DNA of 64,000 nucleotides from Eutypella sp. D-1 (taxonomy: Eukaryota > Ascomycota > Sordariomycetes > Xylariales > Diatrypaceae), in NCBI GenBank assembly GCA_023313575.1, contig JAJTTP010000028.1, positions 124,001 to 188,000 of the forward strand. Direction: 5' to 3'. Below are positions 36,262 through 64,000 of the stretch, piece after piece. Within the stretch, counting starts at the first letter, position 1, and each line of letters opens with the position of its first letter. The notes under the pieces are model-generated. The model had not been told where the DNA came from, did not search any database, and was given only the letters and a program-made list of their open reading frames with translations. The position numbers and the translations under genes are program-made.

Positions 36262-39200
36262 CTATCCAGTAATTCCTCGACGTGATCTATCCAGCAGCCT
36301 TCTGAATGGTCTCTTATTCAGCTCGTGTGCCTGTAACGTCTCGGCTATGTCCTTATGCCCGCAATAGAGCGCTAGCTCCCGAGCTGTCTCACCCTTGTCA
36401 TTCTTTCTGTCTGCCGATGCTCCCCTATCTAAAAGCTTATTGATGACTCCATGTCTCCCGGCTTCGGCCGCCTTATGCAAAGCTGTGTTTCCTGTAGATC
36501 TCACCTTTTTGCCTATAAGACTTGGTTCCTTTTCTAGAAGTATCTCCGCCACAGCTGCGTACCCGGGATTGGAGAGCCACTGCTCTGTTTTTTCAGAGCC
36601 TCCTAGAAACCCAACGGCTTCTACCGGGAATCTATCACCGGCAACATAATGTAAGGGCGTATTGTCAACCCAGGAAAGCGCATCGACTTTTGCACCTTTT
36701 CCCACCAGTTTCTGAACTGCCTTAACACGCCCTGCATATGCTGCTAAATGAAGAGGTGTCTCCATTTCCGCATTTCGGCATTCGATCGACGCGCCCATAG
36801 CAAGGATCTTCTCAATAACTTCTTCATGCCCATTCGCAGCTGCGAAGTGCAGTGCCGTGTAGCCAATCAGATTACCTGACCGGTAATGGTTGCGAGAATA
36901 TCCACCAGCGTACGAAAAAAGTCGTTGCTTGCCATCCGTAATCTTCGCATGCACATCCGCACCGTCCCTGATAAGTAGGTCGACGATTTCCTCATGCCCT
37001 TTCTCTGCCGCAAGATGAAGAGCGGTTGTTCCACCTATATTCGCAGTTGCAGGGGCGCCGCGGCTAAGGAGCTTTTCTAGCATCGTAAGACGACCATTTT
37101 CTGCTGCTCTACACACCGCCCCATAGACCTCATCGGTAATCATAGAATTATGCCTGTCGAATACCATATCGAAGAGATCCTCATGCCCGTAAAAAACGGC
37201 AGTCACCAACGCCGAAGCCCCAGTCTCAGACGCGTCTATTACTTCAGCACCCGCCTCCATCAATTTCTCGGCGACTTGTTTATGCCCACATCTGATGGCA
37301 TAATGTATTGGTTTAATACCAAGCAAAGACCGCGGGCTCAGGGACGCCCCTTTCTCGATGAGAGCCGAGATTGTCCTATAGCAGCCATGCAAAGCTGCTA
37401 GGTGCATTGCTGTGAGGAAATGAGGCCCAGGTTGAACAGACACTTCTTTGTCGACATCAGCGCCATTCTCGAGAAGTATCCACACCGTTTTGCTACGCCC
37501 TTCAGACGCAGCCAAGTGTAAAGCTGTCAAGCCCTCAGCCGTGTACTGCTGTGGAGATAATCTTCTCAGAATGTGCAGCTCGTCATAATTATCCACAGCC
37601 TGGTTTACGGCAAAACCATTATGAATGAGCGTTCTGACGGCCCTATAATAGCCCCACTCGGCTGCCTTATGCAAGTGGTTGGCAGGGATAATTTCCACAG
37701 CTCTGAGTGTAGCGCCCTTTTCGGTGTCAAGTAGTAGTCGGATTATATCACGGCGCCCGTCTATAGCTTCCAAATGCAACAGTGTCCACCCAACGTTGCC
37801 GAGTTGGTCTCCTTGTGTCGCTTTGCTAAATATCAAATCTGCGAAAAGTTGAGGCGTCCAACCATGCAGATCCTTGGTCTGTAGACGAGCTGTAGGGCGT
37901 ATCAGAGTATTCATAATTCGTATGTGTCCGTTTATGGCTGCGAGATGTAGTGGGGTCCATTTGACTCTCTCGTCCTTGGCAACAACACTGGCACGGTGCT
38001 TGAGGAGAAGCTCAACCAGCTCGTAATGACCACTCCCTGCTGCGCAATGCAGTGGCGTCCAGTCGAGTTCCTGGCCAGTGGCTTCGATATCAGCTCCTTT
38101 CTTGAGGAGCCACTGGGCAACGGCGTTGTGCCCAGACATTGCAGCATAATGCAGTGGTGTCAGGCCGTTCCTACCCTTCGCCGAAACGGGAACAAAATTG
38201 CACAGCTTGCGAACGATATCCTCATATCCCATATCAGCTGCGATATGTAGTGCAGAGTTTCCAAATTTGTCTTTTGCTTCGGCATCGCTTTGACTATTCA
38301 GCAACAGTTCCAAAGTTTTCAAAGAGCCTCCCCATGCTGCATAATGAAGGGGAGTCTGCTCAAATGCGCCACCCTTGTCGAAAACCACGCCTCTGCTATG
38401 ACCTCGATGAAGGATCTCCGCAACGATATCATGGTTTCCTCTTTCGGCTGCCAGATGAATAGGGGATTGATCTGCTTCATCTTTCTGGTCCCACGAGCTT
38501 GTTTCATCTCCTATTAAGGCCGGATCTCCCAGCCAGGCAGCATGATGCCAAACTCCCCATTTTCCTCCTGAGAAAATTTCAGATCGACTGGGGTTTGTTG
38601 TGATCAACTGACCATCTGGGGTCATTTGGCAATGGTCAATGACGTTCCAGGCGGTTTCCTGCTCAAGGAGCGGTCGACAACCTTGTGTGTCGCCAAGATT
38701 TATAAGCATTTGCTTGCTTTGACCCCCATCTTGCAAGGCCGACTGGAGTCTTAATGAGCCCACATATCGGCATTTGAAGAACGGAGATGCGCCACCAGAT
38801 CGGAAGACCTCGACGAGAAGGGCTTTGCTGTTAGCATTTTGGTCAACCGCCTCATCGATTGGTGGAAATAAAAGCACATGTTTCTCTTTTTCCTTCTCCA
38901 ATGAGTAACGAACTTGTGCTTCGACTAGGGGATGGGAAACATCCCAGACGCAATCTTGAAGCGTGATAAAGCGAGGCGACACCACTTTCCATTCACCAAT
39001 AACCTCTCCCTTATCGTTGATTGTGAGTTTAGGTCTCTGTGCTGATCGCGGAAGCTGGAAAAGATTCGTTGGAAACCAGCTAAAGCCCTCAGACATCGTG
39101 GCAGATGTATGGAAGAGGTGGTCATGAGAAATCTTCTTGAGTTTTAGTAATATACTCTGATATATGTGTCGCTGAATAGTTTCTCCGCTCGGTGACTGTA

Positions 39201-40194
39201 ATGTGTCGATGCCTGTCAGGAGTCCGGCAATTATGGCTCGGTCCTTGAGCCATGATGTATATCTCGGCCCTAATGTGCTGAGAAGGTCCTCGATTTCCAA
39301 TATTTCGTTATTCCTGAGATTATTAATCATAGCAGCAGCAAGGTTATCCCCCGCTTTGTCCAAGATGTCTTCGTCGAGGTCTTTGATAGTGTCCATGAAA
39401 ATGATCTTAACCTTTTGTGACTTCGCCAATTCGAGAGCAGTCCACCCTCGAGTGAACCAAGACGACAAAACGATGGCCAAGCATGCTGATTGGGGTCCTC
39501 TGAAAGGCAACTTGCGTAAGAAACGATCATGAACCAGAGTTATCCTTGCATATTGATAGTTCAAGTGCATAGTGTTGAGTGCCCGGCTACGAGCGACCTT
39601 GTCCTGCGGGATGCATAGCGTATCCCACCAAATGCCCTCACAATGGAAGCGTTCGGCAATACGCTTGAAGTAGACGAGCAAGCAATCATTGACATTCCCT
39701 GGACCCCATGGTCCAGCCCCCGTGCCGTCAGACCAAACATGGGATACAGCCATGAACGGTCGGGGATGTTTAAGCAGTGCCTGGCCATTGAGTCTCCAAG
39801 CAGTAAGCGACCCTGCATTGACCCCTTTCAGCAGTACATCCTCGCGGAATAATCCGCTGAGTGGGAAGCAGATGGATCTATTGGCATGGTTCCTCTTGAC
39901 CTTTGCCTCGTCGTCTTCTTCGAAGCGTCCGCGTTCGTGGTACTGTTGAACAGCAGTAAAGTCGCGGCTCGAGAACTCGCAGAAATCGAAGGTACAGGAT
40001 GAGTGATCTTCGTGACTCAATGCCTTCTTTAGGCTGCTCGAGTACTCCTCACAGAACCGCTGGATTGGACCACATAGTTCGGACTCCTGGCCCTTAAGCT
40101 GCGAGCCTGTTTGCCAAACACGATTAACGCAAAAGCCATAGTCTTCTGCGGCTCTTTCAATCTCCTGACGGAGCCTGACCAAGTCGTGGGACAT
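36262..40194 (-). CDS. HET-domain and ankyrin-repeat protein (NLR-like architecture without a NACHT/NB-ARC domain)
   Basis: A single uninterrupted 1,310-codon frame. Residues about 147-255 form a HET domain: AVSHVW (149-154), WWDTLCIPQD (189-198), the Y-x-x-A region and SSWFTRGWTALEL (244-256) are the hallmark boxes. HET domains trigger cell death in heterokaryon incompatibility and related fungal immune-type responses. Residues about 575-1,290 carry roughly 17-18 ankyrin repeats with typical TPLHxAAxxGH and ALHLAA boxes, a protein-binding surface that senses or tethers a partner. Between them (about 300-545) is a region of unknown fold. There is no Walker A motif, so the usual central NTPase of fungal NLRs is missing. 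The terminal segment (NKRPFRRLLDRSRRG) is basic. No intron is needed. Near-identical repeat units were not seen, so recent repeat conversion is unlikely. Cytoplasmic location is inferred from the absence of a signal peptide. Confidence 0.92.
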   Translation of the reverse strand: MSHDLVRLRQEIERAAEDYGFCVNRVWQTGSQLKGQESELCGPIQRFCEEYSSSLKKALSHEDHSSCTFDFCEFSSRDFTAVQQYHERGRFEEDDEAKVKRNHANRSICFPLSGLFREDVLLKGVNAGSLTAWRLNGQALLKHPRPFMAVSHVWSDGTGAGPWGPGNVNDCLLVYFKRIAERFHCEGIWWDTLCIPQDKVARSRALNTMHLNYQYARITLVHDRFLRKLPFRGPQSACLAIVLSSWFTRGWTALELAKSQKVKIIFMDTIKDLDEDILDKAGDNLAAAMINNLRNNEILEIEDLLSTLGPRYTSWLKDRAIIAGLLTGIDTLQSPSGETIQRHIYQSILLKLKKISHDHLFHTSATMSEGFSWFPTNLFQLPRSAQRPKLTINDKGEVIGEWKVVSPRFITLQDCVWDVSHPLVEAQVRYSLEKEKEKHVLLFPPIDEAVDQNANSKALLVEVFRSGGASPFFKCRYVGSLRLQSALQDGGQSKQMLINLGDTQGCRPLLEQETAWNVIDHCQMTPDGQLITTNPSRSEIFSGGKWGVWHHAAWLGDPALIGDETSSWDQKDEADQSPIHLAAERGNHDIVAEILHRGHSRGVVFDKGGAFEQTPLHYAAWGGSLKTLELLLNSQSDAEAKDKFGNSALHIAADMGYEDIVRKLCNFVPVSAKGRNGLTPLHYAAMSGHNAVAQWLLKKGADIEATGQELDWTPLHCAAGSGHYELVELLLKHRASVVAKDERVKWTPLHLAAINGHIRIMNTLIRPTARLQTKDLHGWTPQLFADLIFSKATQGDQLGNVGWTLLHLEAIDGRRDIIRLLLDTEKGATLRAVEIIPANHLHKAAEWGYYRAVRTLIHNGFAVNQAVDNYDELHILRRLSPQQYTAEGLTALHLAASEGRSKTVWILLENGADVDKEVSVQPGPHFLTAMHLAALHGCYRTISALIEKGASLSPRSLLGIKPIHYAIRCGHKQVAEKLMEAGAEVIDASETGASALVTAVFYGHEDLFDMVFDRHNSMITDEVYGAVCRAAENGRLTMLEKLLSRGAPATANIGGTTALHLAAEKGHEEIVDLLIRDGADVHAKITDGKQRLFSYAGGYSRNHYRSGNLIGYTALHFAAANGHEEVIEKILAMGASIECRNAEMETPLHLAAYAGRVKAVQKLVGKGAKVDALSWVDNTPLHYVAGDRFPVEAVGFLGGSEKTEQWLSNPGYAAVAEILLEKEPSLIGKKVRSTGNTALHKAAEAGRHGVINKLLDRGASADRKNDKGETARELALYCGHKDIAETLQAHELNKRPFRRLLDRSRRGITG

Positions 40195-53589: not shown

Positions 53590-54064
53590 ATCGTAGCCTA
53601 GTACAGAAATACAGGGCCTAGGACATTTACCCTCGAAGTCCTCCGGCTTGACCTCCGGCGACAGTTGGTTAAATGTATGCCACCATTGGCAATGTCAGTG
53701 TCGAGTTGATCGATCGTTTGACTTGGGACATTTAGACAGCATCGAAAACATCTTCCCAAATGGTAGCATCGATCTTAGCCACGATTAGCTTCTTGCTTTA
53801 GACCATTAAAGCTTCTTTAACGATACATGGTCTGCATGCGTTTGGCAGCTCCAGGTAATGCTTAATGATACCCTTCCCGATACCCCGGTCGGCCTCGGTA
53901 ATAAGTGACGTTCCCTCTGCAATCCCCGATAAGCGGGCCCGAGGTTCCCCGAAGAAACTAACGCCGACGTGACCACAATGACTGACCGATTGCCGTCTCT
54001 CATCGTCCATGTCGTTCTCGTCGCTCCCGTTCTTGTCTTTTCGCTTTGCTGAGGGGAACCCCAT
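53590..54064 (-). pseudogene. Short-chain dehydrogenase/reductase remnant
   Basis: On the minus strand, SLITEADRGIGKGIIKHYLE (about 53,938-53,879) fits the Rossmann nucleotide-binding start of fungal short-chain dehydrogenases, where ITGANRGIG is usual; the first Gly is replaced here. Further on, KLIVAKIDAT plus WEDVFDAV, then in another frame DIANGGI and VNVLGPVFLY, match the next conserved boxes (N-A-G and the VN-x-x-G-P helix) in the right order. Stops (near 53,806 and 53,730) and frame changes separate them, and the catalytic Ser-Tyr-Lys part is missing. It is a dead fragment of an NAD(P)-dependent reductase of the ketoreductase-like type. Confidence 0.65.
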
Positions 54065-54238
54065 GTCGACGCGGACGTCGACCTTTTGCGCGACTGGGAG
54101 ATGTTAAGCTCTTATAGAGTCTCTCTTACAAAGTCAGTCTTGGCAGTATGTTAAGACTTTATCTTGTACTTAGTCTTACTCTCGTATTATATCGTAGCTT
54201 ACCTAGACTTATAATCTTCATCTTCTTTTCTTCTCTCA

Positions 54239-54658
54239 CGCATGTTCAACTTTGGCAGCAACTTTATGATGGACAATCGTTTTCTGGTCCTCGCTGATGA
54301 TATCGATACCCAACTCCAATCGTCCAGTCGAGCCCGCAGCTTGCCGACGGCGGGCTCTAGCTTTCGAAGCCGCAATAAGGTCGCTATATGCCGCCTTAAT
54401 ATCATCGGCGTCGTCGGTCAAGGCTCGTACGGCGTCCTCAACCTGCTCGACTGCACTTTGGACTTGATTAAAGTCGTAGAAATCCGTCCTATTACTCGAA
54501 GCTCCCAGTAACGACAGGCTCTTAGCAAGTGTAAAACCTACCAAGTATTCAATCGTGTCTATTAGGAAGTTGTAGGTCTTGTGGCTCTGCTTTCTGACAC
54601 GAAGCTTCTCGTATGTCCCCATCTTCCGTCTGTTCATCTGGCACCACTGGCCAGACAA
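54239..54658 (-). CDS. Hypothetical helical protein or fragment
   Basis: A 140-codon frame with a protein-like composition. The N-terminal part is basic (MNRRKMGTYEKLRVRKQSHK), the middle is a long predicted helix (VQSAVEQVEDAVRALTDDAD) followed by a basic patch KARARRRQ, and the end is IDIISEDQKTIVHHKVAAKV. No signal peptide or membrane segment. A possible intron (GTAGGT donor near 54,543) was noticed but not needed. No family recognised. It could be a fragment of a larger decayed gene together with the coding-like sequence at 54,780-55,167. Confidence 0.35.
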
Positions 54659-54759
54659 TCCCGATTCATTCCAGCTGCTGTTTATTCATCAGCCTTCAAT
54701 CTATTCTGTCGGCCACTGCCGTCGGCTTATCCCTTGTTGTCGCGGGAGTGAGCAAATTT

Positions 54760-55170
54760 TGATAGCAAATTTTAGCACATGGTGGCAACGGCCACCATTA
54801 AGAAGACACCGGCGTCCAAAGCCTCGGCGTCTGCCGCTTCTCCATCGACGCCCACCCCGGCTCCTGGCCCTTCGCCTTTTTGACCAGATCCAGGGCCAAT
54901 GCCGCCACTACGCCATCGACTAAACGCACCCAGTCGTCGCCCCTCTCCTCGGGGGTCACGTTGATAAAGGACCTTCTCGCCTAAGAGGCCCAAGCCGCGG
55001 CCGCCTCGTCGACCACTTCTACACCTACCAAGAAGGCCAAAGTTTTGGTCGTCGTCGAGTATCTGCTGCGTGAGATCAGCTTTTTTAATCACCGTATCCA
55101 GATTAGCAAAAGCAGGCCATACGGAAAATTTATAAAGAGAAAGGCAGCCGTACTTCCACGACACCATCTT
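54760..55170. other. Coding-like but broken sequence, strand uncertain
   Basis: Plus strand: MVATATIKKTPASKASASAA starts at 54,778 and stops after 34 codons; a shifted frame continues with KAKVLVVVEYLLREISFF. Minus strand: FINVTPEERGDDWVRLVDGV is also open for a while. One strand is presumably the relic of a gene, but the evidence does not decide which. Confidence 0.3.
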
Positions 55171-55947
55171 TATACATTCTCAAATTCGGTCGGTTTTATG
55201 AGCAGATCCTGAAGTGCGTGGAGGCGCATGATCAACTGTGAATGATTTTGTCGGTGATCCTCCCATTGCAGCTGACGTCGGGACCGTCTGGGATTACACA
55301 GGATTAACCCGTAAGACCTCCTGGGGAGACTATTCCGTCGGTGTCCCTGAAAAAGTCCAAGATGGAGCCTCGCATCGTAAAAAACGCACGATTTACTTTA
55401 TCCCACCTTGTCCCGGAGGGCTAATTGAACCTATCGGTGACCATTGCGACTTGATATGGTCGATCTAGCATAATTCTAGTCAAGTCCGTTATCTTCCAAT
55501 ATCCGTAAGGATGCAGTCGGTGATGTTTGATATTGGTTGGCCTGCTGTAATCAAATCCCCGTTAATGAGATTATCTGAGGTGATGGCTTTCTGAAAGTGT
55601 AGCTATCGCTGAGGCTAACCTAGCACGCCCTTAGCGCCGTGCGATCCACCAGGAGACGTGGGCACGGAGGACGAGGCCGCGGGGAGCATCGCGCGGCGCC
55701 CTACCTCCGACTCAGGGCCACAACAGACCAGCCTCGTAACAAGATAAGCCAATGGGTCATAATGAGTTCGAATGTATCGGGTGTTATACTTAGGAGCTCC
55801 CTGGAGGAACCGAAGCCGTTGCGATAGTCATCTACGTAGTTACGGGCGTCATTGACAGGAAAGGTTGAGGAGTCACCTGTAAAGTCGAAGGAGTTACTCA
55901 GGTGGTTATAGATCCCGCGTTTATACTTGAAGCCAGAGTCTGACTGT
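55171..55947. other. No gene seen; left flank of the virus-like block
   Basis: Short frames only, the longest 76 codons at 55,238-55,468 (plus), unrecognised. It forms the boundary between fungal decayed sequence and the polymerase frame that ends at 55,948. Confidence 0.5.
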
Positions 55948-57594
55948 TTATAGGGACTCGGGTACCGTGAGCTTCACGTCGTCGATCTTCTCCACTATTA
56001 TGGTGACCATCACGGCCCGGTCGAGGAGGTCACTCGGTGAGTCGGCTTTCGCAATGAACCCCAACTTCGTGTATGGCATCGAGCTAGTGGCGGCCGTCGA
56101 TACGGACATCATCGATATGATCGGCACGCCGTTATCCGTACCGACGCCGAAGCACATGCCACCATCCTTGAGGATCGTCTCAACTGCTGTGATCGTTGCC
56201 GAGCTCTTCCCGTGCTTGGCGGCGTCGATTTCGTTCTGGTATAGCGTGGCCGTCATCTTCGTCAGTGCTGATGAGCACTCCACCAAACTCATGTCGGTGG
56301 TGGTCCGGATAACAGGTATGGGCTCAGCGTGTATCGATCTCACCGTCATATGACCGCATTCGGGAATGACGATCGTTCCGAGCATCATGGCGTTTCTCAT
56401 CTGGACGTATGGCTTTCCTATGCTGTGCTTGCTCATGGTCGAGTTGACTATGCCGGCCATCGACCTCTCGACCCAGGTCCTCCAGTAGTTCACACTGAGT
56501 GAGGTTTTGCCCATGACGTTCCAGCTCCTCAGCCTCAGCATCAGCGTGTCGTATATCGGACCACCTGGATGATCGATCATATTGTCGGGCGGCATTGTCG
56601 TGTACATGGCAGGATCAACATCAGGATCGGTACCCATCTCGATCGTCTGCCTGGCCGCCGTGGAGTACACGCTCTCGGTATTCCCCGTGTCCCACTTGAT
56701 CTTCCACGCCTCAGTCGCCTCAACCTCAGCATCTCTGCTGCCGGGTTTGAGAACCCAAGCCTCGTCACCATCAAAATCGGTGTTGTTGAGCTTGCAGACG
56801 TCTAGTGGCACTCTCATCGATGGTTCACCAGGCACACCACGTACCACTTTCATGGGTAAGGCACTCTCCTTACCCGTTGATGGGAATCTGCCGTACATCA
56901 CGATATTACCCTCCTCCATCTTGATCGACTCGAATCTCCCATCCTCGCTCATGCGCAAGAACATGCTGCGGTCGAAGAACTCAGGGGGCATCGTTATGCA
57001 TCCCATCTGGTCGGTCATGTCATCGTTGATGTTGGGCCTCTTGGGCGACTCCACGCACCTCATGCTGTTCGTCGGTCTAGTCGAGTTGCACATCCTACGC
57101 AGCACGCCTCTGTTGCCTCTGATCTTGTCCAGGCAGTAGTTGGCCATCTCGTCGGCGCTGATGTCTCCGGAGAACGCTGCCATGTTCGTGGCAGCCGCAT
57201 CACTGTATCTCAGATCGTCTCCGGTGGCGAAACCGAACGACATCATGTAGACCGACTCATTCTGGTCGATCATGTGATGGCCACGACACTGCCTGCCGTG
57301 CACAACGCACCCAGCGATCGTAGTCAGATCCTCGCCCCAACATCTGCAGATGTAGACGCTGTCTATATTCATCTCGGTCCACTCACACTCGACCACTATG
57401 GGGGCCACCGATATCGATGATCCCGGACGCGCGACGCGCCTGATGTTGAACTCCCTGTTGTCCGACATTGTGATTTCGGTCATCCGTGTGTGTAGATTTT
57501 GAACTTGTATGCGCATGATCATAACCATCTTGTGCTGACGATCGGCGGTGCGAACTCCCAGAGGGTCTATAGGGTGGCTCATCATGATCACCAT
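55948..57594 (-). CDS. Virus-like DNA-dependent RNA polymerase largest subunit (Rpb1/beta'-type), catalytic part, C-terminally truncated
   Basis: An uninterrupted 548-codon frame. Residues 271-280, NTDFDGDEAW, are the universal metal-A loop of the multisubunit RNA polymerase largest subunit (cellular form NADFDGDEMN); the three catalytic Asp are 273, 275 and 277. Before it, GRFPSTGKES (235-244) and MRVPLDVCK sit where the conserved G-R-x-P-x-L-H and the strand leading to the loop are expected, and RRVARPGSSISVAP (52-65) fits the switch-2 region. After it, about 450-545 fits the funnel, bridge-helix and trigger-loop area in a very divergent form. The frame ends at 55,948, before the C-terminal third found in complete enzymes. 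The Trp two residues after DGDE differs from cellular enzymes. The protein is unusually rich in Met, Thr, Val and Ser. It is not a duplicate of the host Rpb1: it is far shorter and far too divergent. Host relative unknown; lineage (large DNA virus or cytoplasmic linear plasmid) open. Confidence 0.8.
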   Translation of the reverse strand: MVIMMSHPIDPLGVRTADRQHKMVMIMRIQVQNLHTRMTEITMSDNREFNIRRVARPGSSISVAPIVVECEWTEMNIDSVYICRCWGEDLTTIAGCVVHGRQCRGHHMIDQNESVYMMSFGFATGDDLRYSDAAATNMAAFSGDISADEMANYCLDKIRGNRGVLRRMCNSTRPTNSMRCVESPKRPNINDDMTDQMGCITMPPEFFDRSMFLRMSEDGRFESIKMEEGNIVMYGRFPSTGKESALPMKVVRGVPGEPSMRVPLDVCKLNNTDFDGDEAWVLKPGSRDAEVEATEAWKIKWDTGNTESVYSTAARQTIEMGTDPDVDPAMYTTMPPDNMIDHPGGPIYDTLMLRLRSWNVMGKTSLSVNYWRTWVERSMAGIVNSTMSKHSIGKPYVQMRNAMMLGTIVIPECGHMTVRSIHAEPIPVIRTTTDMSLVECSSALTKMTATLYQNEIDAAKHGKSSATITAVETILKDGGMCFGVGTDNGVPIISMMSVSTAATSSMPYTKLGFIAKADSPSDLLDRAVMVTIIVEKIDDVKLTVPESL

Positions 57595-57599
57595 CTCGT

Positions 57600-57690
57600 C
57601 GTCATCATCAACATCGCAACCGCCATCACATCGTCATCATCGTCGCCAGCATCGTCATCATAGTCATCACCTCCATCATGATTGTCAGTG
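57600..57690 (-). repeat. Asp/Asn-coding GAT/GAC tract at polymerase frame break
   Basis: On the minus strand the DNA is a GATGATGAC-type low-complexity tract. It separates the N-terminal polymerase-like frame (57,685-58,080) from the main frame starting upstream of 57,594, and the reading frame changes across it. Slippage here could be the cause of the break. Confidence 0.6.
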
Positions 57691-58080
57691 TTGGTGTTCG
57701 ACATCGTCGTGCCTCCCATCAGCATTACCAAGCAGATCTGATGGTCTGCACGAGTGCGCATAGTCGGGATGTTTGTTGAACACCTTCAGCATGCTGAACA
57801 TCTTCGTGAGATCCGCGACGATGACCCCGTCGGTGGTGGTTATGATTATGTTGCTCATGATCGTCGGCAGCTGGCGCACACCATCATCACTCAGACACAT
57901 GCACCCCGGCGGTGCTGTCGAGCATGTCCTGATCTTTATCCCGACCAACCTCCTGCACGAGACACAGCAGTTCACGATAATGTTGCACATGCTCGCGATC
58001 GTTGTCGTGGAGGTTATGTCGGTGTTATACAAGCTGGCTGGCAGGCTACGGAACTGCCATTTGATGCTGCGCCGTGACAT
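57685..58080 (-). CDS. Probable N-terminal (zinc-binding) part of the same RNA polymerase subunit, out of frame with the main part
   Basis: A 131-codon frame directly upstream of the main polymerase frame, on the same strand. CNIIVNCCVSCRRLVGIKIR (about residues 32-51) has a C-x-x-C and further Cys residues (C65, C75 and C77 region), as in the zinc-binding N-terminus of largest subunits. KMFSMLKVFNKHPD then RPSDLLG resembles the region that follows. It ends in the GAT/GAC tract, where the frame would have to change to join the main frame. It shares the Met/Thr/Val-rich composition of its neighbours. Identification rests on position and a few residues only. Confidence 0.4.
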   Translation of the reverse strand: MSRRSIKWQFRSLPASLYNTDITSTTTIASMCNIIVNCCVSCRRLVGIKIRTCSTAPPGCMCLSDDGVRQLPTIMSNIIITTTDGVIVADLTKMFSMLKVFNKHPDYAHSCRPSDLLGNADGRHDDVEHQH

Positions 58081-58139
58081 CGGTCATCATCACGTCACTC
58101 GAAATCATATTATCAACATCACTAGCCACGATAGGCATC
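58081..58139. promoter_or_regulatory. Short divergent intergenic gap between polymerase and capping-enzyme genes
   Basis: Only about 60 bp separate the minus-strand start at 58,080 and the preferred plus-strand start at 58,140. Such tight divergence is normal for viruses or linear plasmids and unusual for fungal nuclear genes. No recognisable promoter motif was seen. If the polymerase or capping starts are elsewhere, the genes may even overlap. Confidence 0.4.
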
Positions 58140-60056
58140 ATGAGCAGCGACACGAGCCACATATGCCCAAGCTGCGGGGAAAGCAGGGATCCGACGAAGG
58201 CCAGGTTTGAGCACAGGAGACTTGGTCTGGATGAGCCTCCCGAGCCCGTTCTGTGCAAGTGCGTGAACCCGAGCAAGGTATTCGACACCGTGTCGGTCAG
58301 CTACCCCGAAACGATGGACCAAATCAACATCGTAGGCGACACGACCATGAGATCTCTACCGAGCCCTAACCCGAACATGGTTGTCGTCGAGACCATGAGT
58401 AGCGTACCAACACCCGAGACCGAGATAAGGCTCGATCCCACCATAGCCAAGAAGCTGCATGAGAGGATGGAGAATGGTCTCATGCCCGGCACCGTGCCGA
58501 GGAACATCAGAGAGATAATCTGCCCATGGTGGTGTGGACCTGACATGAACGTCAACGCCAGGGCTAGGAAAAGGTCCAACGGGGAGTCTGTGATCAAGAT
58601 CACCAAGCTCAGATACCAGATATTGCCCGGGTACACCCTGGCCGTGTCTGACGAGTACGGCTTCGACGGCACGATCAAGAACGTGATGTATGATGTTGAC
58701 ATGACCGAGATGAAGTATAGCACCACAGTCACGAGCTCGGACGGCAGATCCACCACAACCATCACGATGATGTCCAGGATGTACACCACGGAGACCAAGA
58801 CGTCGTACGCAGCTGAGGTTGAGATGGATGGTGAGATCACCAATGTGGTCTTGAGGCGAGTCGTGGCCATCATGATAGGCATCGTCGGCTGTCCGAAGTC
58901 ACTACGACCACACATCGACGCCACGTACCTGTCCGACATCAGATCGAGAGATCCCATAGTCGTCGACGTCCCGACACTGAGCGGACACAGCGGAAGGATA
59001 CTGGCGAAGGCCGATGGCATGAAGGTTTACATCATGTCGTACATGTTTGGGTACGTGACGGTCCTGTCCGACCCAGGTCTGACCATCCAGGGCTGCATCG
59101 TGACCATAGATCCTCTCGCGCCGATGTCGAGAACGCCTGATGTAATCGTGGCTGAGATGTTGCTGAACAGGTCCATGGTGTTCATAGCGAACCTGGCGAT
59201 TAATGGTCAGATCGCTAGCAGCACCGACTTCGAGTATCCGGGGGTGAGGACATCGTGTAGAACACCTCACTTCATACACAGAACGCCATGGATCACGATG
59301 CCGACCAGGTCACAGCTCAAGTTCGAGCCCACGCCCAACGATGGCATAATGCTGGTGAACGATCTCAGGACGACCAGACTCAAGATCCCCACGGTTGACC
59401 TGATATGCGTCGATACCAGGCTATGCGCGATCGACAATGGGGTGATGGTTCCCGTGGCCATGAGTAACACCAACATGGAGGACGGCGTTGTGTACGAGGC
59501 GGATGTCGTCAAGTCTGCCGATAGCAAGTCCGTCAGGATAGTCAAGCCGAGACCGAGAGTGACTAAGAAGATGTCGAATCCGATCGATGTGGTTAGACGG
59601 GCGGTCGTGAGCGCTATGCGGGACGATTGCCTGAGCTCGGCGCTCCTGGATGTTACGTCGATGTCATTCGCCATGAGAGAGCGGATCTACACGCTGGCCC
59701 AAACCAACACATCGTCCGGGAAGAACGTCATCGTCATATTCGGTGCTGGTAGTTTCCAAGAGTGGAAGCAGATGATGTCCACCAAGACGTCCTACATAAC
59801 GGTGGATCCGGAGATCGACGTGACAATGCTAACGAAGAGGGCGGCGACTGCCACGGTAATGCCGTACGACCTCAGAACGCCGTTCAACATCCAAGTCATG
59901 AGTATCGCCAAGAGGCCACATACGGTCCTGTGGGCAAGTGCACGTCCGAGATGTTCATCGACAGAACCATGCCGAGTAGGTTCATGGTACAGGCCGGTAT
60001 GCCGGCCGTGTTCCCGTTCGGCTTATCGTACCACATACCGGTCATCAACAGACTGA
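58140..60056 (+). CDS. Virus-like trifunctional mRNA capping enzyme (RNA triphosphatase, guanylyltransferase, cap N7-methyltransferase), frame broken near its end
   Basis: The frame is open from 58,074 but the Met at 58,140 (before SSDTSHICPSCG) is preferred. Numbers below count from 58,074. A CPSCG...CKC cluster (31-63) may bind zinc. TEIRLDP (116-122) and YAAEVEMDGE (245-254) fit the glutamate strands of a metal-dependent tunnel-type RNA triphosphatase. KADGMKVY (312-319) is the guanylyltransferase motif I with Lys312 as the GMP-carrying nucleophile; FGYVTVLSD (325-333), VAEML (359-363, motif IV Glu), PNDGIML (421-427) plus LKIPTVDLI (436-444, motif V) and RPRVTKK (493-499, near motif VI) follow in the correct order. 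VIVIFGAGS (552-560) and TVDPEID (576-582) are the SAM-binding start of an N7-methyltransferase. This order is that of fused capping enzymes of poxvirus-like viruses, asfarvirus-like viruses and yeast linear plasmids. After about residue 612 the frame turns into non-homologous sequence; the proper continuation lies in another frame. Confidence 0.85.
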   Translation: MSSDTSHICPSCGESRDPTKARFEHRRLGLDEPPEPVLCKCVNPSKVFDTVSVSYPETMDQINIVGDTTMRSLPSPNPNMVVVETMSSVPTPETEIRLDPTIAKKLHERMENGLMPGTVPRNIREIICPWWCGPDMNVNARARKRSNGESVIKITKLRYQILPGYTLAVSDEYGFDGTIKNVMYDVDMTEMKYSTTVTSSDGRSTTTITMMSRMYTTETKTSYAAEVEMDGEITNVVLRRVVAIMIGIVGCPKSLRPHIDATYLSDIRSRDPIVVDVPTLSGHSGRILAKADGMKVYIMSYMFGYVTVLSDPGLTIQGCIVTIDPLAPMSRTPDVIVAEMLLNRSMVFIANLAINGQIASSTDFEYPGVRTSCRTPHFIHRTPWITMPTRSQLKFEPTPNDGIMLVNDLRTTRLKIPTVDLICVDTRLCAIDNGVMVPVAMSNTNMEDGVVYEADVVKSADSKSVRIVKPRPRVTKKMSNPIDVVRRAVVSAMRDDCLSSALLDVTSMSFAMRERIYTLAQTNTSSGKNVIVIFGAGSFQEWKQMMSTKTSYITVDPEIDVTMLTKRAATATVMPYDLRTPFNIQVMSIAKRPHTVLWASARPRCSSTEPCRVGSWYRPVCRPCSRSAYRTTYRSSTD

Positions 60057-60280
60057 GTACAGAGCACGTGTCGATGTTCGGGTGTGGTTTCGTTCACGAT
60101 TCGATACCGATTCGCGGGGTGCGTACCGATTCGATATCGATAACCCCCATAGGACCTGGTAGACAATCGAGCTCCATAATCAGGGCGACGTTGGGTAAAT
60201 CGACATACATCGAGCCGTACCTGAGCAAAGCATCGATCCCAGGACTGGTTTTGGTCAAGGACGACATGCCGAGCCTATAG
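59900..60280 (+). pseudogene. Methyltransferase C-terminal part of the capping enzyme, displaced by one frame shift
   Basis: A second plus-strand frame, meaningful from about 59,920 to the stop at 60,278-60,280, gives FPFGLSYHIPVINRLSTEH and MFGCGFVHDS, which fit the rest of an N7-methyltransferase fold (the core strand followed by the active-site helix and strand), and ends VLVKDDMPSL. The switch from the main frame lies between about 59,900 and 59,935, so one base appears lost (or two gained) there. Either a true inactivating lesion or a sequencing or assembly indel would explain it. Confidence 0.65.
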
Positions 60281-60326
60281 AGAAGCGTGGACACGAACAC
60301 TATATCGATAATAAGTAGAGCTGTAA

Positions 60327-60455
60327 TCATGTGCGTGTTCTGAACCTCATCGTTATGGGGGTCATCTGTAAGCTGTTCATACTGGCAACCTCCACGAGCA
60401 TAACGTGCATGAGCAGGCCGTAAGTCGTGGTCTTCTCGATACCCGTTTCCCTCGA
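60327..60455 (-). other. Possible RNA polymerase C-terminal fragment, out of order
   Basis: A short minus-strand frame reads GIEKTTTYGLLMHVMLVEV and then MNSLQMTPITMRFRTRT before a stop at 60,327. It is reminiscent of the late conserved region of largest subunits (R-H-x-x-L-x-x-D-x-M-T...ITR). It lies beyond the capping gene, that is, upstream of the polymerase start in polymerase orientation, so it is not collinear with 55,948-57,594. The piece is short and the Met-rich composition makes chance likeness possible. Confidence 0.25.
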
Positions 60456-61440
60456 ACTTCCTTTTAATTCACCAACCCCACCGGGGGTTAGGGATAGGGG
60501 TGGCTTAATGCTAGTTTAGCGTCTGTGTAACTGCAAGAGGGAGTACAGGCGTTTCCAAGATTGGTTTTAATAACTCCCTAAGTAAGGACGTTATAGACTT
60601 ACTGCTTAATATCTTCGGGGGCGACCTCGGCATTGTCTGGTAGCAAATGCTAACCGCCCTCTCCACAGCGGATAGTCGTGCCTGGAAATCCTCTGTAATA
60701 ACTTAATATGCTTAAAGATGGGGTACGGGGTATATTGGCTTGCGTTACGTCTATATGTACTGCACGACTGTCTCCGATTTCATCAGAGACTAGTCAGGCG
60801 ATGGATTTGTTTCCTTGTCAGACCCTGACACGGTTAACCGTACATATGAAGTGCTCGGTCTTAACATCATGACCCCGTTCCCAAGACCACCAGCATAACC
60901 ACCAGCATGGCCCGCAGCCTTGTACTTACAACGTGCCTAGTGAAGGTTACGGTTGAGATATCTAAATCGTTATGTATATAAGAGATGTCTTCCCCATGTT
61001 ATCTAAAATAACAGCTAAATACCAGTTTTATAAAAGTCGTGCCCCCCTTTTCAATAGTAACTTTTCTTATCTGAAGCTGCCCTTGTAGCGTCAGTATTGT
61101 TTGAAGTCGTGGCTAAGATAGTAACGAAGTACTGCCTAATTAGGGGGAATTCTATGTATCTAGAGCCCTGTGAAGTCTTCGCTGCAGGGCCGATGACAAA
61201 CTAAAGATTGTCAGCGAGAACTTAGCGGCCGGCCGAGACTGTCTTCCGGTGACAAGGGGCTGTCAAGAGCTGTCACATGAATTCGAAATCTTCATCGCAA
61301 TCTCATTTGTCTCTGTTGACTTTGGTGGTGTTGTCGCCTTCGAGTAATTACCCATGGACCTGCCTGGGAATCATGATTACACAGACTGGTGGAAATGACC
61401 ATGTGGCTGTTAATGACATAGCTCCGGAAGCCGACATCCT
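60456..61440. other. No feature seen; right flank of virus-like block
   Basis: Composition and codon structure typical of the polymerase and capping frames stop near 60,455. Only very short frames follow. No repeat or RNA gene recognised. Confidence 0.5.
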
Positions 61441-61690
61441 CGACGGGATTTGAAGGATTGGAACAATGGCCTATTCAGGTCTCGCGGATCGCCTGTATGA
61501 ACGTATGGAAGCCCCCCGACTGCGACTGGTCGCCGTGAGAGATCGTGCTGGAATGGTAGACGCGGTACGTAGCTGATGTCTTGCAGGATGATACCGTCGG
61601 CGATCGCGGACAGCACAGGATTGGGCCACCGATTGAGGGGACGGCGGTGACGGTTGCCATGGACATGCCGCGATCACTGGAAGATCGGTG
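61441..61690 (+). pseudogene. Integrase-like relic 2 (homologue of 45,246-45,480)
   Basis: The plus strand reads RIACMNVWKPPDCDWSP, a stop, EIVLEW, a stop, then YVADVLQDDTVGDRG, matching AIARMNVREVPDCDLPP, SEIMLG and IVADALQGDTI of relic 1 in order and spacing. Nucleotide identity is visible along about 150 bp. Stops show it is dead. Two diverged copies support a real former coding element, most likely a retroelement integrase. Confidence 0.45.
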
Positions 61691-62808
61691 AGAGTGGTTT
61701 AAACTCGCAATGATCCCAATCGATTCGAGAACGCCTACGCGGTGGGTTAATAGGACGGAGGGGGGAAGAATTTATGAAAGCGGTGGTGCCATTATAAGAT
61801 TTAAAGGCCATAGAATAACGATGCTTTTAGCGCACGTTACCATCTCAGCTTATGATTACAGCTATCAGCATGATATTCGTTTGTGAAGAAATCGTTCATA
61901 AGAAGACATGAATCACCACCTATCTAAACTACGATGCTGGGTGATAGGTGGTAAGGCAGCTTGCTAATTAAGGATAGGCTTTAGCATTTAATCCAATCGA
62001 GGTTTTCAGGTGTACCAAATAAGGCGCAGCCCCTTTCGAGATGCGTAACATCCTTACCAGTTATTAAATTCACTATTTACTTAAACGCCGATATAACTTT
62101 GGATAACCCTATAGAACCTATAAGGACTTATAGCGATAGCGATAAGCTTAACTTCTTGACGGAGCAGGTAGGAGTTAACTTATTACTTTTTTATATTGCA
62201 CGTTAACGGATAAATGGGATGCACCATTATTAAAGGATTAAAACCGAGCAATCGTAGACAATACCGATTATATACTGATATATGGACAGTAGCTTTAATA
62301 ACGGTAGAAAAGTAGGTAGCTTGACCCTTTAAGTGAGAATGGCATCGTGGTGTATCATCTTACTAGTTACTATGTCATACCGATAGCTACAAGTGCATCG
62401 CCATACCTGATACCAGGGCTTAACACTTGGGTGGGTGTGGTCGGAAAGAAATCTCTGGAGAGCGGCCGTTTTAGGCTTACCTCCCTTTGAGAATTGTTAA
62501 GCGGGCGGCGCCGCGATCTGTCAAGTTACGCGATAAACTTAGTTCGCCACTAACGCATCTGTACGGGAAGACGTTTTCCTAGGTGGGTGTCCTTAACGAA
62601 GAACTCTAACTTTATCCTGGAAAGATAGGGTTTATCGGCCAATGCCTTGTGCACCGTACCAGCATAGACTAAATGGAATAAGACTGGCCAATTAAGAAAT
62701 ACGGCAGGAGAAAAGGGACGTATTAGTTATTAAGGATGGATGATGGAATGTTGCTTGCTTGCTTGCTTGGTCTTAAGATACGAATCGTTAATGCAGGATG
62801 GGAAAAAA
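61691..62808. other. Intergenic, no gene seen
   Basis: 3' flank of the TDP2-like gene. It includes four GCTT units at 62,753-62,768 and otherwise only short frames. Confidence 0.55.
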
Positions 62809-63878
62809 TCAATGACTTCCGTCGCTTCCTGCCGTACCGCCAACAGCAAAATTACAAACAAGTCCCGAATGATCACTCCACGGCACCTCTTCTCTGCTAT
62901 CGCCCGCAATATCCTCCCCTGGAGAGTCAGCCGCTGTTGGCAACGTCTCAGGATGAATAACCCTGATGCCCACAAGCCTAACACCCAGTACAGCAACCCT
63001 GTCCAACCGTGCCGCAGGGAACGGATCCCCTTTCCCATCCAGCCCCCACGTAAATCCGCTCTCCCCAGGATGCAGATACTCCCATGCATCTATCAAGTTA
63101 TTTTCCCGTGCCAGCGCCACGTCCTCCTCGGTAACTGAGTTCCAGTCGCCGGCAATGACTCCCCGTCCCACGCCCGCCGTGCGAAGGAGATCAGCAGCGA
63201 TAGCTACCTGACGTGGTCGCTGATTAGGCTGGACGGGGAGAGAGTCGAGATGCACATTTACCAGACGAATACGCGCTGTGCGGTTCCAGACGATGTCGCA
63301 GCAGAGCGCGTCTCGGTTAAAGCGACTCGGGTATTTAATTCTCCAGACTGGACCGAGGCTGAATAACCCCTCATTGCTAGAAGGGACGCCAAATCGCGAC
63401 CGGGAAAGCAAAGTCATAGTCGCGAAGGGCACATCTGCCCAGTTCGTCTCATCGGCTTCACTTGAGATCCAGAATTCTTTAATCCAGGGTTTTGCAGTAG
63501 ATAAGCAAGGGCTTTTTGTGATACTTCCTGGAAGAACACAATGTCTGGACCGGTATTATCGCCGGCATGCATTTGCTGAAGTTTGGAAAGAAGTCCTCCC
63601 ATCCGGGATTCGGGTCGGTCACCGAAAGCATCGATGTTCCATGTTAGAAGTTGTAGATCTGGTGTTTGTGATATCGTTGGGGCGGTCCCACCAGGCCGGT
63701 GGGGCTGGGGCTGGGCGTTATCAAGAGGACCGAGTTGAACAGGCGTCCACTTGCCAGTGGATTTGTTAAAAATATGCCAGTGCTGAAATACAGGCGGTGC
63801 TGCATCTGGTAGGTCTGGGAGTGGTGTAGAATGTGACCAGGACAGGTAGCGGGTGCGAAGAGACGATATAAAAGACAT
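62809..63878 (-). CDS. TDP2-like endonuclease/exonuclease/phosphatase-family protein with one frame break
   Basis: Start at the Met at 63,878 (MSFISSLRTRYLSW); an upstream Met at 63,998 only adds a low-complexity stretch. All catalytic boxes of the Mg-dependent endonuclease/exonuclease/phosphatase fold are present and in order: LLTWNID (Asn), VFFQEV (Glu), VNVHLDS, AGDWNS (Asp and Asn), RLDRV and WSDHSGL (Asp-His). The TWN, QEV, GDWN and SDH set with this length (about 355 residues) fits tyrosyl-DNA phosphodiesterase 2-like proteins, which remove 5'-tyrosyl DNA adducts left by topoisomerase II; fungal members are mostly uncharacterised. Between 63,484 and 63,490 the frame changes: before it the protein reads LLQNP, after it WIKEFWISSEADETNWADVP, a perfect-looking continuation with no GT-AG intron between. 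One base in a short C run seems missing, either a real mutation or a sequencing error. Confidence 0.8.
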
Positions 63879-64000
63879 GATGATGATGATGTATGTCCTT
63901 GTCTGGTGCTGGTGGTTGCTGGTGTTATTATTATTAAGGTCGTTGCGGATGTTGACAGAAGTTACTAAATAATAAAAGGATACAAATAGAATAAGCAAAA
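63879..64000. other. 5' flank of the TDP2-like gene, window end
   Basis: Contains an ATG/ATC-rich tract (63,877-63,891) and T-rich sequence. No feature beyond the likely promoter side of the minus-strand gene. Confidence 0.4.

What the first reader, a model, noticed from the sequence alone, without database searches (positions are those of the whole stretch)
55948..60280. Endogenised virus-like transcription module: own RNA polymerase subunit next to a fused capping enzyme
Seen: a 548-codon frame with NTDFDGDE, the universal RNA polymerase metal loop, and on the other strand a 640-codon frame with KADG, NDGIML, LKIPTVDL and SAM-binding motifs in the order of a trifunctional capping enzyme. 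Known: DNA elements that transcribe in the cytoplasm (nucleocytoplasmic large DNA viruses, yeast cytoplasmic linear plasmids) carry exactly these two functions, because they cannot use the nuclear machinery. Inferred: an element of this kind infected or lived in a filamentous ascomycete and left a piece in the nucleus. DNA elements of this type are scarcely known from Pezizomycotina, so this may represent an undescribed lineage.
Basis: partly seen in the sequence, partly recalled or inferred. Interest (0 to 1): 0.92.

Follow-up and report, generated by a model that had tools for sequence, protein, structure and literature searches.

The report
Relic of unknown fungal DNA virus-like element
A broken piece of DNA in this fungal chromosome comes from an apparently undescribed family of small DNA elements of filamentous fungi that carry a catalytic piece of their own RNA polymerase and, most likely, their own mRNA-capping enzyme, which matters because hardly any double-stranded DNA viruses of fungi are known.

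Summary
Window 55,915-60,346 carries a truncated Rpb1-like gene (-) and, divergent from it, a broken gene with the motif order of a trifunctional capping enzyme (+). The Rpb1 assignment is firm (Pfam 1.9e-6; 12 of 12 aligned relatives; profile match 1.5e-11 around the catalytic barrel). Neither gene is a copy of the host's own. Both belong to a family of 73 database proteins. The 16 with an organism name come from Pezizomycotina (15 organisms, 14 checked); 57 are unnamed. Contigs cluster at 20-36 kb, where 33 of 36 proteins are full length, against 1 of 9 on contigs over 100 kb: free elements plus chromosomal relics. A second relic, of another clade, lies about 85 kb away and has a DnaQ-like exonuclease. 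Searches of IMG/VR, phages, plasmids and GTDB found no member; eight literature searches found no description. Best reading: nuclear debris of an undescribed lineage of roughly 20-36 kb DNA elements with their own transcription. Cytoplasmic life, Rpb2 partner, replication and capsid remain unseen.

The parts
55915..57468 (-). Rpb1-like (RNA polymerase beta'-type) gene relic: open from 57468 to the stop at 55948, last ~80 residues of the family missing
57685..58080 (-). 131-aa open frame between the two genes, possibly a third element gene; no relative found
   Evidence: no Pfam match over cut-off; no similarity to five segments compared; not searched against the large protein database
58140..60056 (+). 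capping-enzyme-like gene relic, main open frame: Zn-binding-type N-terminus, E-x-E triphosphatase-like, K-x-D-G guanylyltransferase-like and SAM-methyltransferase-like parts; the family frame is left near 59.94 kb
59933..60346 (+). rest of the capping-like gene in another frame, with one in-frame stop
54000..55914 (.). left flank, taken as host DNA: single copy in the genome apart from one 80-base match (94%) on another contig
60400..62400 (.). right flank, taken as host DNA: single copy in the genome

Best explanation
The 4.4 kb block is a decayed nuclear copy of part of a double-stranded DNA virus-like element of filamentous ascomycetes that normally exists as a free molecule of about 20-36 kb. 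In the intact element the ~600-aa Rpb1-like protein would be the catalytic half of a DNA-directed RNA polymerase (its NTDFDGDE loop holding the metal ion), working with a second-largest subunit coded elsewhere on the element. The divergent ~730-aa protein would cap the transcripts: RNA triphosphatase, guanylyltransferase and cap methyltransferase in one chain. Together they would let the element make translatable mRNA without the nuclear machinery. A piece was joined into the chromosome, probably by repair of broken DNA, and is now decaying. Shown: homology of the Rpb1-like barrel, gene order, the family and its distribution, truncation and breaks, chromosomal setting. Inferred: enzyme activities, free molecule, cytoplasmic life, route of insertion.
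For: Rpb1 domain 2 in 12 of 12 aligned relatives. Family profile against PDB: Rpo1N/A' chains 2e-9, Pol II 7e-8, Pol III 1e-7, Pol I 6e-7, rpo147 1.7e-4. hhalign to partial host Pol I/II/III frames plus a viral Rpb1: probability 97.4, E 1.5e-11 over P0001 residues 88-255. Capping: eight motif tests, each met by 41-43 of 43 relatives over 600 aa. Triphosphatase-like order in 42 of 43 against 13 of 12,900 shuffles; SAM-like in 42 of 43 against 1 of 12,900; a guanylyltransferase pattern that fits the host's own enzyme in 31 of 43 against 0 of 12,900 shuffles and 0 of 22 Rpb1-like proteins (patterns written after seeing the family). Full length in 33 of 36 in the 20-36 kb class against 1 of 9 above 100 kb, Fisher p 6e-6. 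Genes on both strands. The 16 proteins with an organism name come from Pezizomycotina (14 of 15 organisms checked). Second relic of another clade on the same contig with a DnaQ-like exonuclease.
Against: No profile search finds a capping enzyme. hhalign to the host's guanylyltransferase and methyltransferase is not significant (6 of 60 and 2 of 60 shuffles as high). The guanylyltransferase patterns miss 11 or 12 of 43 relatives, and a first, strict one fitted 1 of 43 and failed on the host enzyme. Beyond the barrel region no canonical Rpb1 part was detected: bridge helix no better than shuffles (40 of 100), trigger-loop stretch 3 of 100 with a one-sequence template. No Rpb2-like protein, DNA polymerase or capsid was identified. 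The free molecule is deduced from contig lengths only; the contigs could not be fetched. The Fisher test treats proteins of one contig as independent, and its length criterion counts fused gene models as full length. The trees hold only family members, so the origin of the family is open.
Confidence: 0.8

Rival explanations
1. A Pezizomycotina branch of the yeast cytoplasmic linear plasmids (pGKL2-type virus-like elements) left the piece.
For: Those elements also carry an RNA polymerase and a three-domain capping enzyme that act together (PMC6211774, passages).
Against: There the polymerase is a fusion of beta with part of beta' that lacks most of the clamp; here the Rpb1-like protein stands alone, 581-627 aa in unfused full-length relatives. 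Yeast elements with anticodon nucleases are >75% A/T (abstract of PMC4431711 as listed); the relics are 54.5% and 58.2% G+C. Cytoplasmic linear plasmids are said to be known only from Saccharomycetales (PMC10328495, passage). A direct comparison with pGKL2 proteins was not run.
Confidence: 0.08
2. The piece comes from a nucleocytoplasmic large DNA virus (Nucleocytoviricota).
For: Such viruses carry Rpb1 and capping enzyme, and an endogenous one is reported from Rhizophagus irregularis (PMC10640383, passages).
Against: Their Rpb1 is far longer (recalled; an IMG/VR frame found here has 1509 aa, its virus group not checked). Their genomes are given as 70 kb to 2.5 Mb, while no relative's contig lies between 52 and 139 kb. 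Vaccinia-type rpo147 is a weaker profile match than archaeal-type and cellular Rpb1. Hallmark genes were not searched for.
Confidence: 0.08
3. The two frames are duplicated host genes or host proteins of unknown function.
For: The fungus does have Rpb1-type and capping genes.
Against: Those lie on other contigs and match their families far more strongly (1e-76 to 9e-67 against 1e-5). The host match of the Rpb1-like frame is 32% over 100 residues. Relatives are mostly full length on small contigs and mostly degraded on large ones.
Confidence: 0.02
4. The Rpb1 part is right but the ~730-aa protein is another enzyme with a nucleotidyltransferase-like core (for instance an RNA or DNA ligase), so the pair is not a transcription and capping module.
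For: No profile method confirmed capping.
Against: Ligases are not known (recalled) to join an E-x-E tunnel-type part before and a SAM-binding part after the K-x-D-G core; that order is seen here in most of 43 relatives.
Confidence: 0.12

Closest known systems
Yeast cytoplasmic linear dsDNA virus-like elements (pGKL2 of Kluyveromyces lactis)
   Same: Small DNA element of ascomycetes with its own multisubunit-type RNA polymerase gene and a capping enzyme gene (the latter likely here)
   Different: Rpb1-like protein separate instead of a beta-beta' fusion; G+C-rich instead of A+T-rich; contigs mostly of 20-36 kb; named hosts Pezizomycotina instead of budding yeasts
Nucleocytoviricota (NCLDV), including the endogenous 1.5 Mb region in Rhizophagus irregularis
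   Same: Own Rpb1 and capping enzyme; endogenised in fungi
   Different: Rpb1-like protein less than half as long; contigs far smaller; no NCLDV hallmark gene seen in the two relics (not searched for elsewhere)
Archaeo-eukaryotic RNA polymerase largest subunit (Rpo1N/Rpb1)
   Same: Catalytic barrel with N-[TA]-DFDGDE and the R-[IL]-KGK-x-G-x-[LF]-R stretch before it
   Different: About 600 residues; nothing after the barrel aligns significantly

Membership tests
RNA polymerase largest subunit (Rpb1/beta') superfamily | Double-psi barrel domain with metal-binding NxDFDGD loop | tested here: met
   DFDGDE invariant in 12 of 12 aligned sequences; by sequence only, fold not modelled
RNA polymerase largest subunit (Rpb1/beta') superfamily | Bridge helix and trigger loop | tested here: inconclusive
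   bridge helix 40 of 100 shuffles as high; trigger-loop stretch 3 of 100, template of one sequence
Trifunctional viral-type capping enzyme (D1 / pGKL2 ORF3 type) | Triphosphatase, guanylyltransferase and N7-methyltransferase motifs in that order in one chain | tested here: inconclusive
Yeast cytoplasmic virus-like elements | RNA polymerase as beta-beta' fusion plus small subunit | tested here: not met
   unfused full-length relatives are 581-627 aa and begin directly with the family's own N-terminus; no beta part seen
Yeast cytoplasmic virus-like elements | Very A+T-rich DNA | tested here: not met
   relics 54.5% and 58.2% G+C; the feature is stated for elements with anticodon nucleases
Yeast cytoplasmic virus-like elements | Linear DNA with terminal protein and protein-primed DNA polymerase B | not testable with these tools
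   the 20-36 kb contigs could not be fetched; no such gene was recognised in the two relics
Nucleocytoviricota | Large genome (70 kb and more) | tested here: inconclusive
   contig lengths cluster at 20-36 kb, 2 of 66 between 36 and 100 kb, but contigs may be incomplete
Nucleocytoviricota | Major capsid protein, PolB, packaging ATPase, VLTF3 | not tested
   intact contigs not available
Host Pol I/II/III largest subunits or host capping enzymes | Closest relation to the fungus's own genes | tested here: not met

The most novel reading that the evidence does not exclude
An undescribed, widespread family of roughly 20-36 kb double-stranded DNA viruses or virus-like elements lives in filamentous ascomycetes of at least four classes. 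It has a miniaturised RNA polymerase unlike both the yeast-plasmid and the giant-virus type, and it repeatedly leaves fragments in host chromosomes.
Probability: 0.6. Interest if true: 0.93.

Novelty: new variant of a known kind. Interest (0 to 1): 0.85.

Why it matters
A 2023 paper states that no double-stranded DNA virus infecting fungi was known (abstract of PMC10640383), and cytoplasmic linear plasmids are reported only from Saccharomycetales (PMC10328495, passage). A family of compact DNA elements with their own transcription, with named hosts in four classes of Pezizomycotina and no member found in the viral catalogue searched, would open DNA virology of filamentous fungi. It would offer a very small RNA polymerase largest subunit for study. 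It would also bear on whether transcription genes of cytoplasmic DNA elements were acquired once or several times.

Tried and rejected
Family scans gave nothing usable for the capping-like family: Pfam, PHROGs, NCBIfam, PADLOC. PDB searches neither: single sequence, only chance-level hits; profile, no hit; profile, one hit at E 1.4. Scans of IMG/VR, of GTDB genomes with the capping family only, tblastn of the phage collection with a capping relative only and of the plasmid collection with one relative of each family found no member. Idea that segments fused to relatives' gene models match genes of the second relic or the 131-aa frame: no real similarity (with P0004, P0009, P0022, P0027; with the first three). 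The hits of 'p310' came from a wrong reading frame and were discarded. Idea that a bridge helix can be read after the barrel: not supported. A resemblance of one second-relic protein (L015:8119-9047, +) to TATA-binding protein was seen by eye only and is not claimed. A capsid reading of the P0022 N-terminus was dropped for lack of evidence. Repeats of 14 bases and more around the relic: nothing convincing at its edges; short target duplications would be missed. The first shuffle control for the triphosphatase pattern (2 of 12,900) looked only at the first 280 residues of each shuffle; the fair one gave 13 of 12,900. Literature searches for a description: (eight; listings read). Passages of PMC6211774, PMC10328495, PMC10640383 and PMC12142844 were read; 61; 88; 60; no paper was read whole. 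No bioRxiv papers are held.
Full report
What is there. One search confirms both frames. The minus-strand frame 55948-57594 holds NTDFDGDE. The plus-strand frame 58074-60056 holds KADG, NDGIML and LKIPTVDL. The alignment with relatives puts the start of the first gene at 57468 and shows that its last ~80 residues are missing. Homology ends near 55,915. The second gene is open from 58140, is left by the family frame near 59.94 kb and is continued in another frame to about 60,346 with an in-frame stop. So this is a 4.4 kb fragment, cut at one end at least and broken inside. A 131-aa frame at 57685-58080 (-) lies between the two genes.

Rpb1-like protein. Pfam RNA_pol_Rpb1_2 is matched above its cut-off (1.9e-6) and by 12 of 12 aligned sequences. 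A profile of these 12 finds Rpo1N/A' chains first in PDB (best 2.1e-9), then Pol II (7e-8), Pol III (1e-7) and Pol I (6e-7), with rpo147 at 1.7e-4 and bacterial beta' at about 0.4 or weaker (that Rpo1N chains are archaeal and rpo147 is vaccinia's is recalled). hhalign against partial frames of the host's Pol I/II/III subunits plus a viral Rpb1 gives probability 97.4 and E 1.5e-11 over residues 88-255 of P0001, which includes the conserved stretch before the barrel. After the barrel nothing aligns significantly. A bridge helix scored no better than shuffles (40 of 100 as high) and the trigger-loop stretch, with a one-sequence template, only weakly (3 of 100). The protein is therefore a very short, strongly diverged largest subunit; it would need an Rpb2-type partner, which I did not find.

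Capping-like protein. 51 related proteins were found in two searches (27; 46, of which 24 new). Most full-length ones have 721-750 aa. Among 43 of more than 600 aa, a Zn-type N-terminus is in 41, ExExR in 41, KxDG in 41, R[LM]KxPTxDL in 42, GxGRxQE in 42 and SY[IV]x[IV]DP in 43. Ordered patterns fit as follows, with whole-length shuffles as control: tunnel-type triphosphatase 42 of 43 against 13 of 12,900; SAM binding 42 of 43 against 1 of 12,900; guanylyltransferase order, with a pattern that also fits the host's own enzyme, 31 of 43 against 0 of 12,900. An earlier strict pattern fitted 1 of 43 and failed on the host enzyme; a looser one fitted 32 of 43. All patterns were written after seeing the family and from recalled motif knowledge. 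No Pfam, NCBIfam or PDB profile confirms the assignment. hhalign to the host's guanylyltransferase and cap methyltransferase places some motifs in the expected register but is not significant (6 of 60 and 2 of 60 shuffles as high). I hold the capping reading likely, not shown.

Not host genes. The host has three strong Rpb1-type genes on other contigs, one guanylyltransferase and one cap methyltransferase gene, matched in two stretches. Both flanks are single-copy apart from one 80-base match, inside a 355,692-base contig. P0023, 97% identical to the relic over 359 columns, comes from another dataset, so the relic is not private to this assembly. In the capping tree both are sister to a copy on a 3.4 Mb contig of Apiospora aurea.

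The family. Searches found 22 Rpb1-like and 51 capping-like relatives. 16 of these 73 carry an organism name, from 15 organisms. 14 of the 15 were looked up and all 14 are Pezizomycotina: six Sordariomycetes, four Dothideomycetes, two Eurotiomycetes, two Lecanoromycetes; the fifteenth is an unnamed species of Xylariaceae. Of 66 distinct lengths, 25 are under 20 kb, 30 lie between 20 and 36 kb, 2 between 36 and 100 kb and 9 above 100 kb. Proteins are full length by size in 33 of 36 cases in the 20-36 kb class, 21 of 26 below 20 kb, 0 of 2 at 36-100 kb and 1 of 9 above 100 kb. Fisher p for the 20-36 kb class against the class above 100 kb is 6e-6, but proteins of one contig are not independent, and a few lengths are of fused gene models. 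This is what free elements of that size plus decaying chromosomal pieces would give. The DNA of those contigs was out of reach.

A second relic. The own genome holds one more Rpb1-like piece, C21:93839-94822, about 85 kb upstream of the first. It is the end of a stretch C21:~87,640-94,835 with 58% G+C that abuts A+T-rich DNA. It carries several long frames on both strands, four of which have 91-96% G or C at third codon positions against 74-75% in the window's relic. Among them is a DnaQ-like exonuclease (NCBIfam DinG model, E 4e-5, far below that model's own cut-off; not found by Pfam). Three of its proteins have no other copy in this genome. In the Rpb1 tree a 185-aa piece of it groups with P0019 and P0015, not with the window's relic. 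The fungus was therefore probably invaded by at least two members of the family.

Comparison. Yeast cytoplasmic elements have a beta-beta' fusion lacking most of the clamp, plus a small subunit, in complex with a D1-like capping enzyme (PMC6211774, passages read). Here the Rpb1-like protein is separate, the DNA is G+C-rich (54.5 and 58.2%), and the named hosts differ. Nucleocytoviricota have larger genomes and a much longer Rpb1 (recalled; an IMG/VR frame has 1509 aa). IMG/VR, the phage and plasmid collections and GTDB genomes yielded no member in the searches made. Eight literature searches found no description. It works like these systems if the inference holds, but tested features set it apart from the yeast elements, and membership in Nucleocytoviricota has no support so far; I file it as an undescribed lineage of the same general kind.

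Noticed in passing
G000:C21:87640-94835 (L015:3640-10000 and L016:1-835), outside the window: Second, larger relic of the same family but another clade: C-terminal half of the Rpb1-like gene, a DnaQ-like exonuclease and at least five other open frames of unknown function, with 91-96% G or C at third codon positions in the four frames measured.
   Followed up: partly
window 1-34000 and G000:C21:94900-124000: A+T-rich block of more than 60 kb (mostly 17-30% G+C) with the dinucleotide signature of repeat-induced point mutation (TA/AT 1.31 in the window part), between the two relics; centromere or old repeats. The relics themselves show no such signature.
   Followed up: partly
window 36262-40194 (-): 1310-aa protein with many ankyrin repeats and a HET domain match.
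   Followed up: no
window 62809-63998 (-): Two neighbouring frames with weak matches (below cut-off) to the endonuclease/exonuclease/phosphatase family, probably one gene with an intron or a break.
   Followed up: no
P0022 (Xylaria polymorpha) residues 1-510: Gene model fuses an unknown ~500-aa protein to pieces of the Rpb1-like protein; perhaps a neighbouring element gene.
   Followed up: partly
capping tree: Relatives from different fungal classes are interleaved (Beauveria near Hortaea and Macrophomina; Baudoinia in the other half of a midpoint-rooted tree), which hints at transfer between hosts or an old radiation.
   Followed up: no
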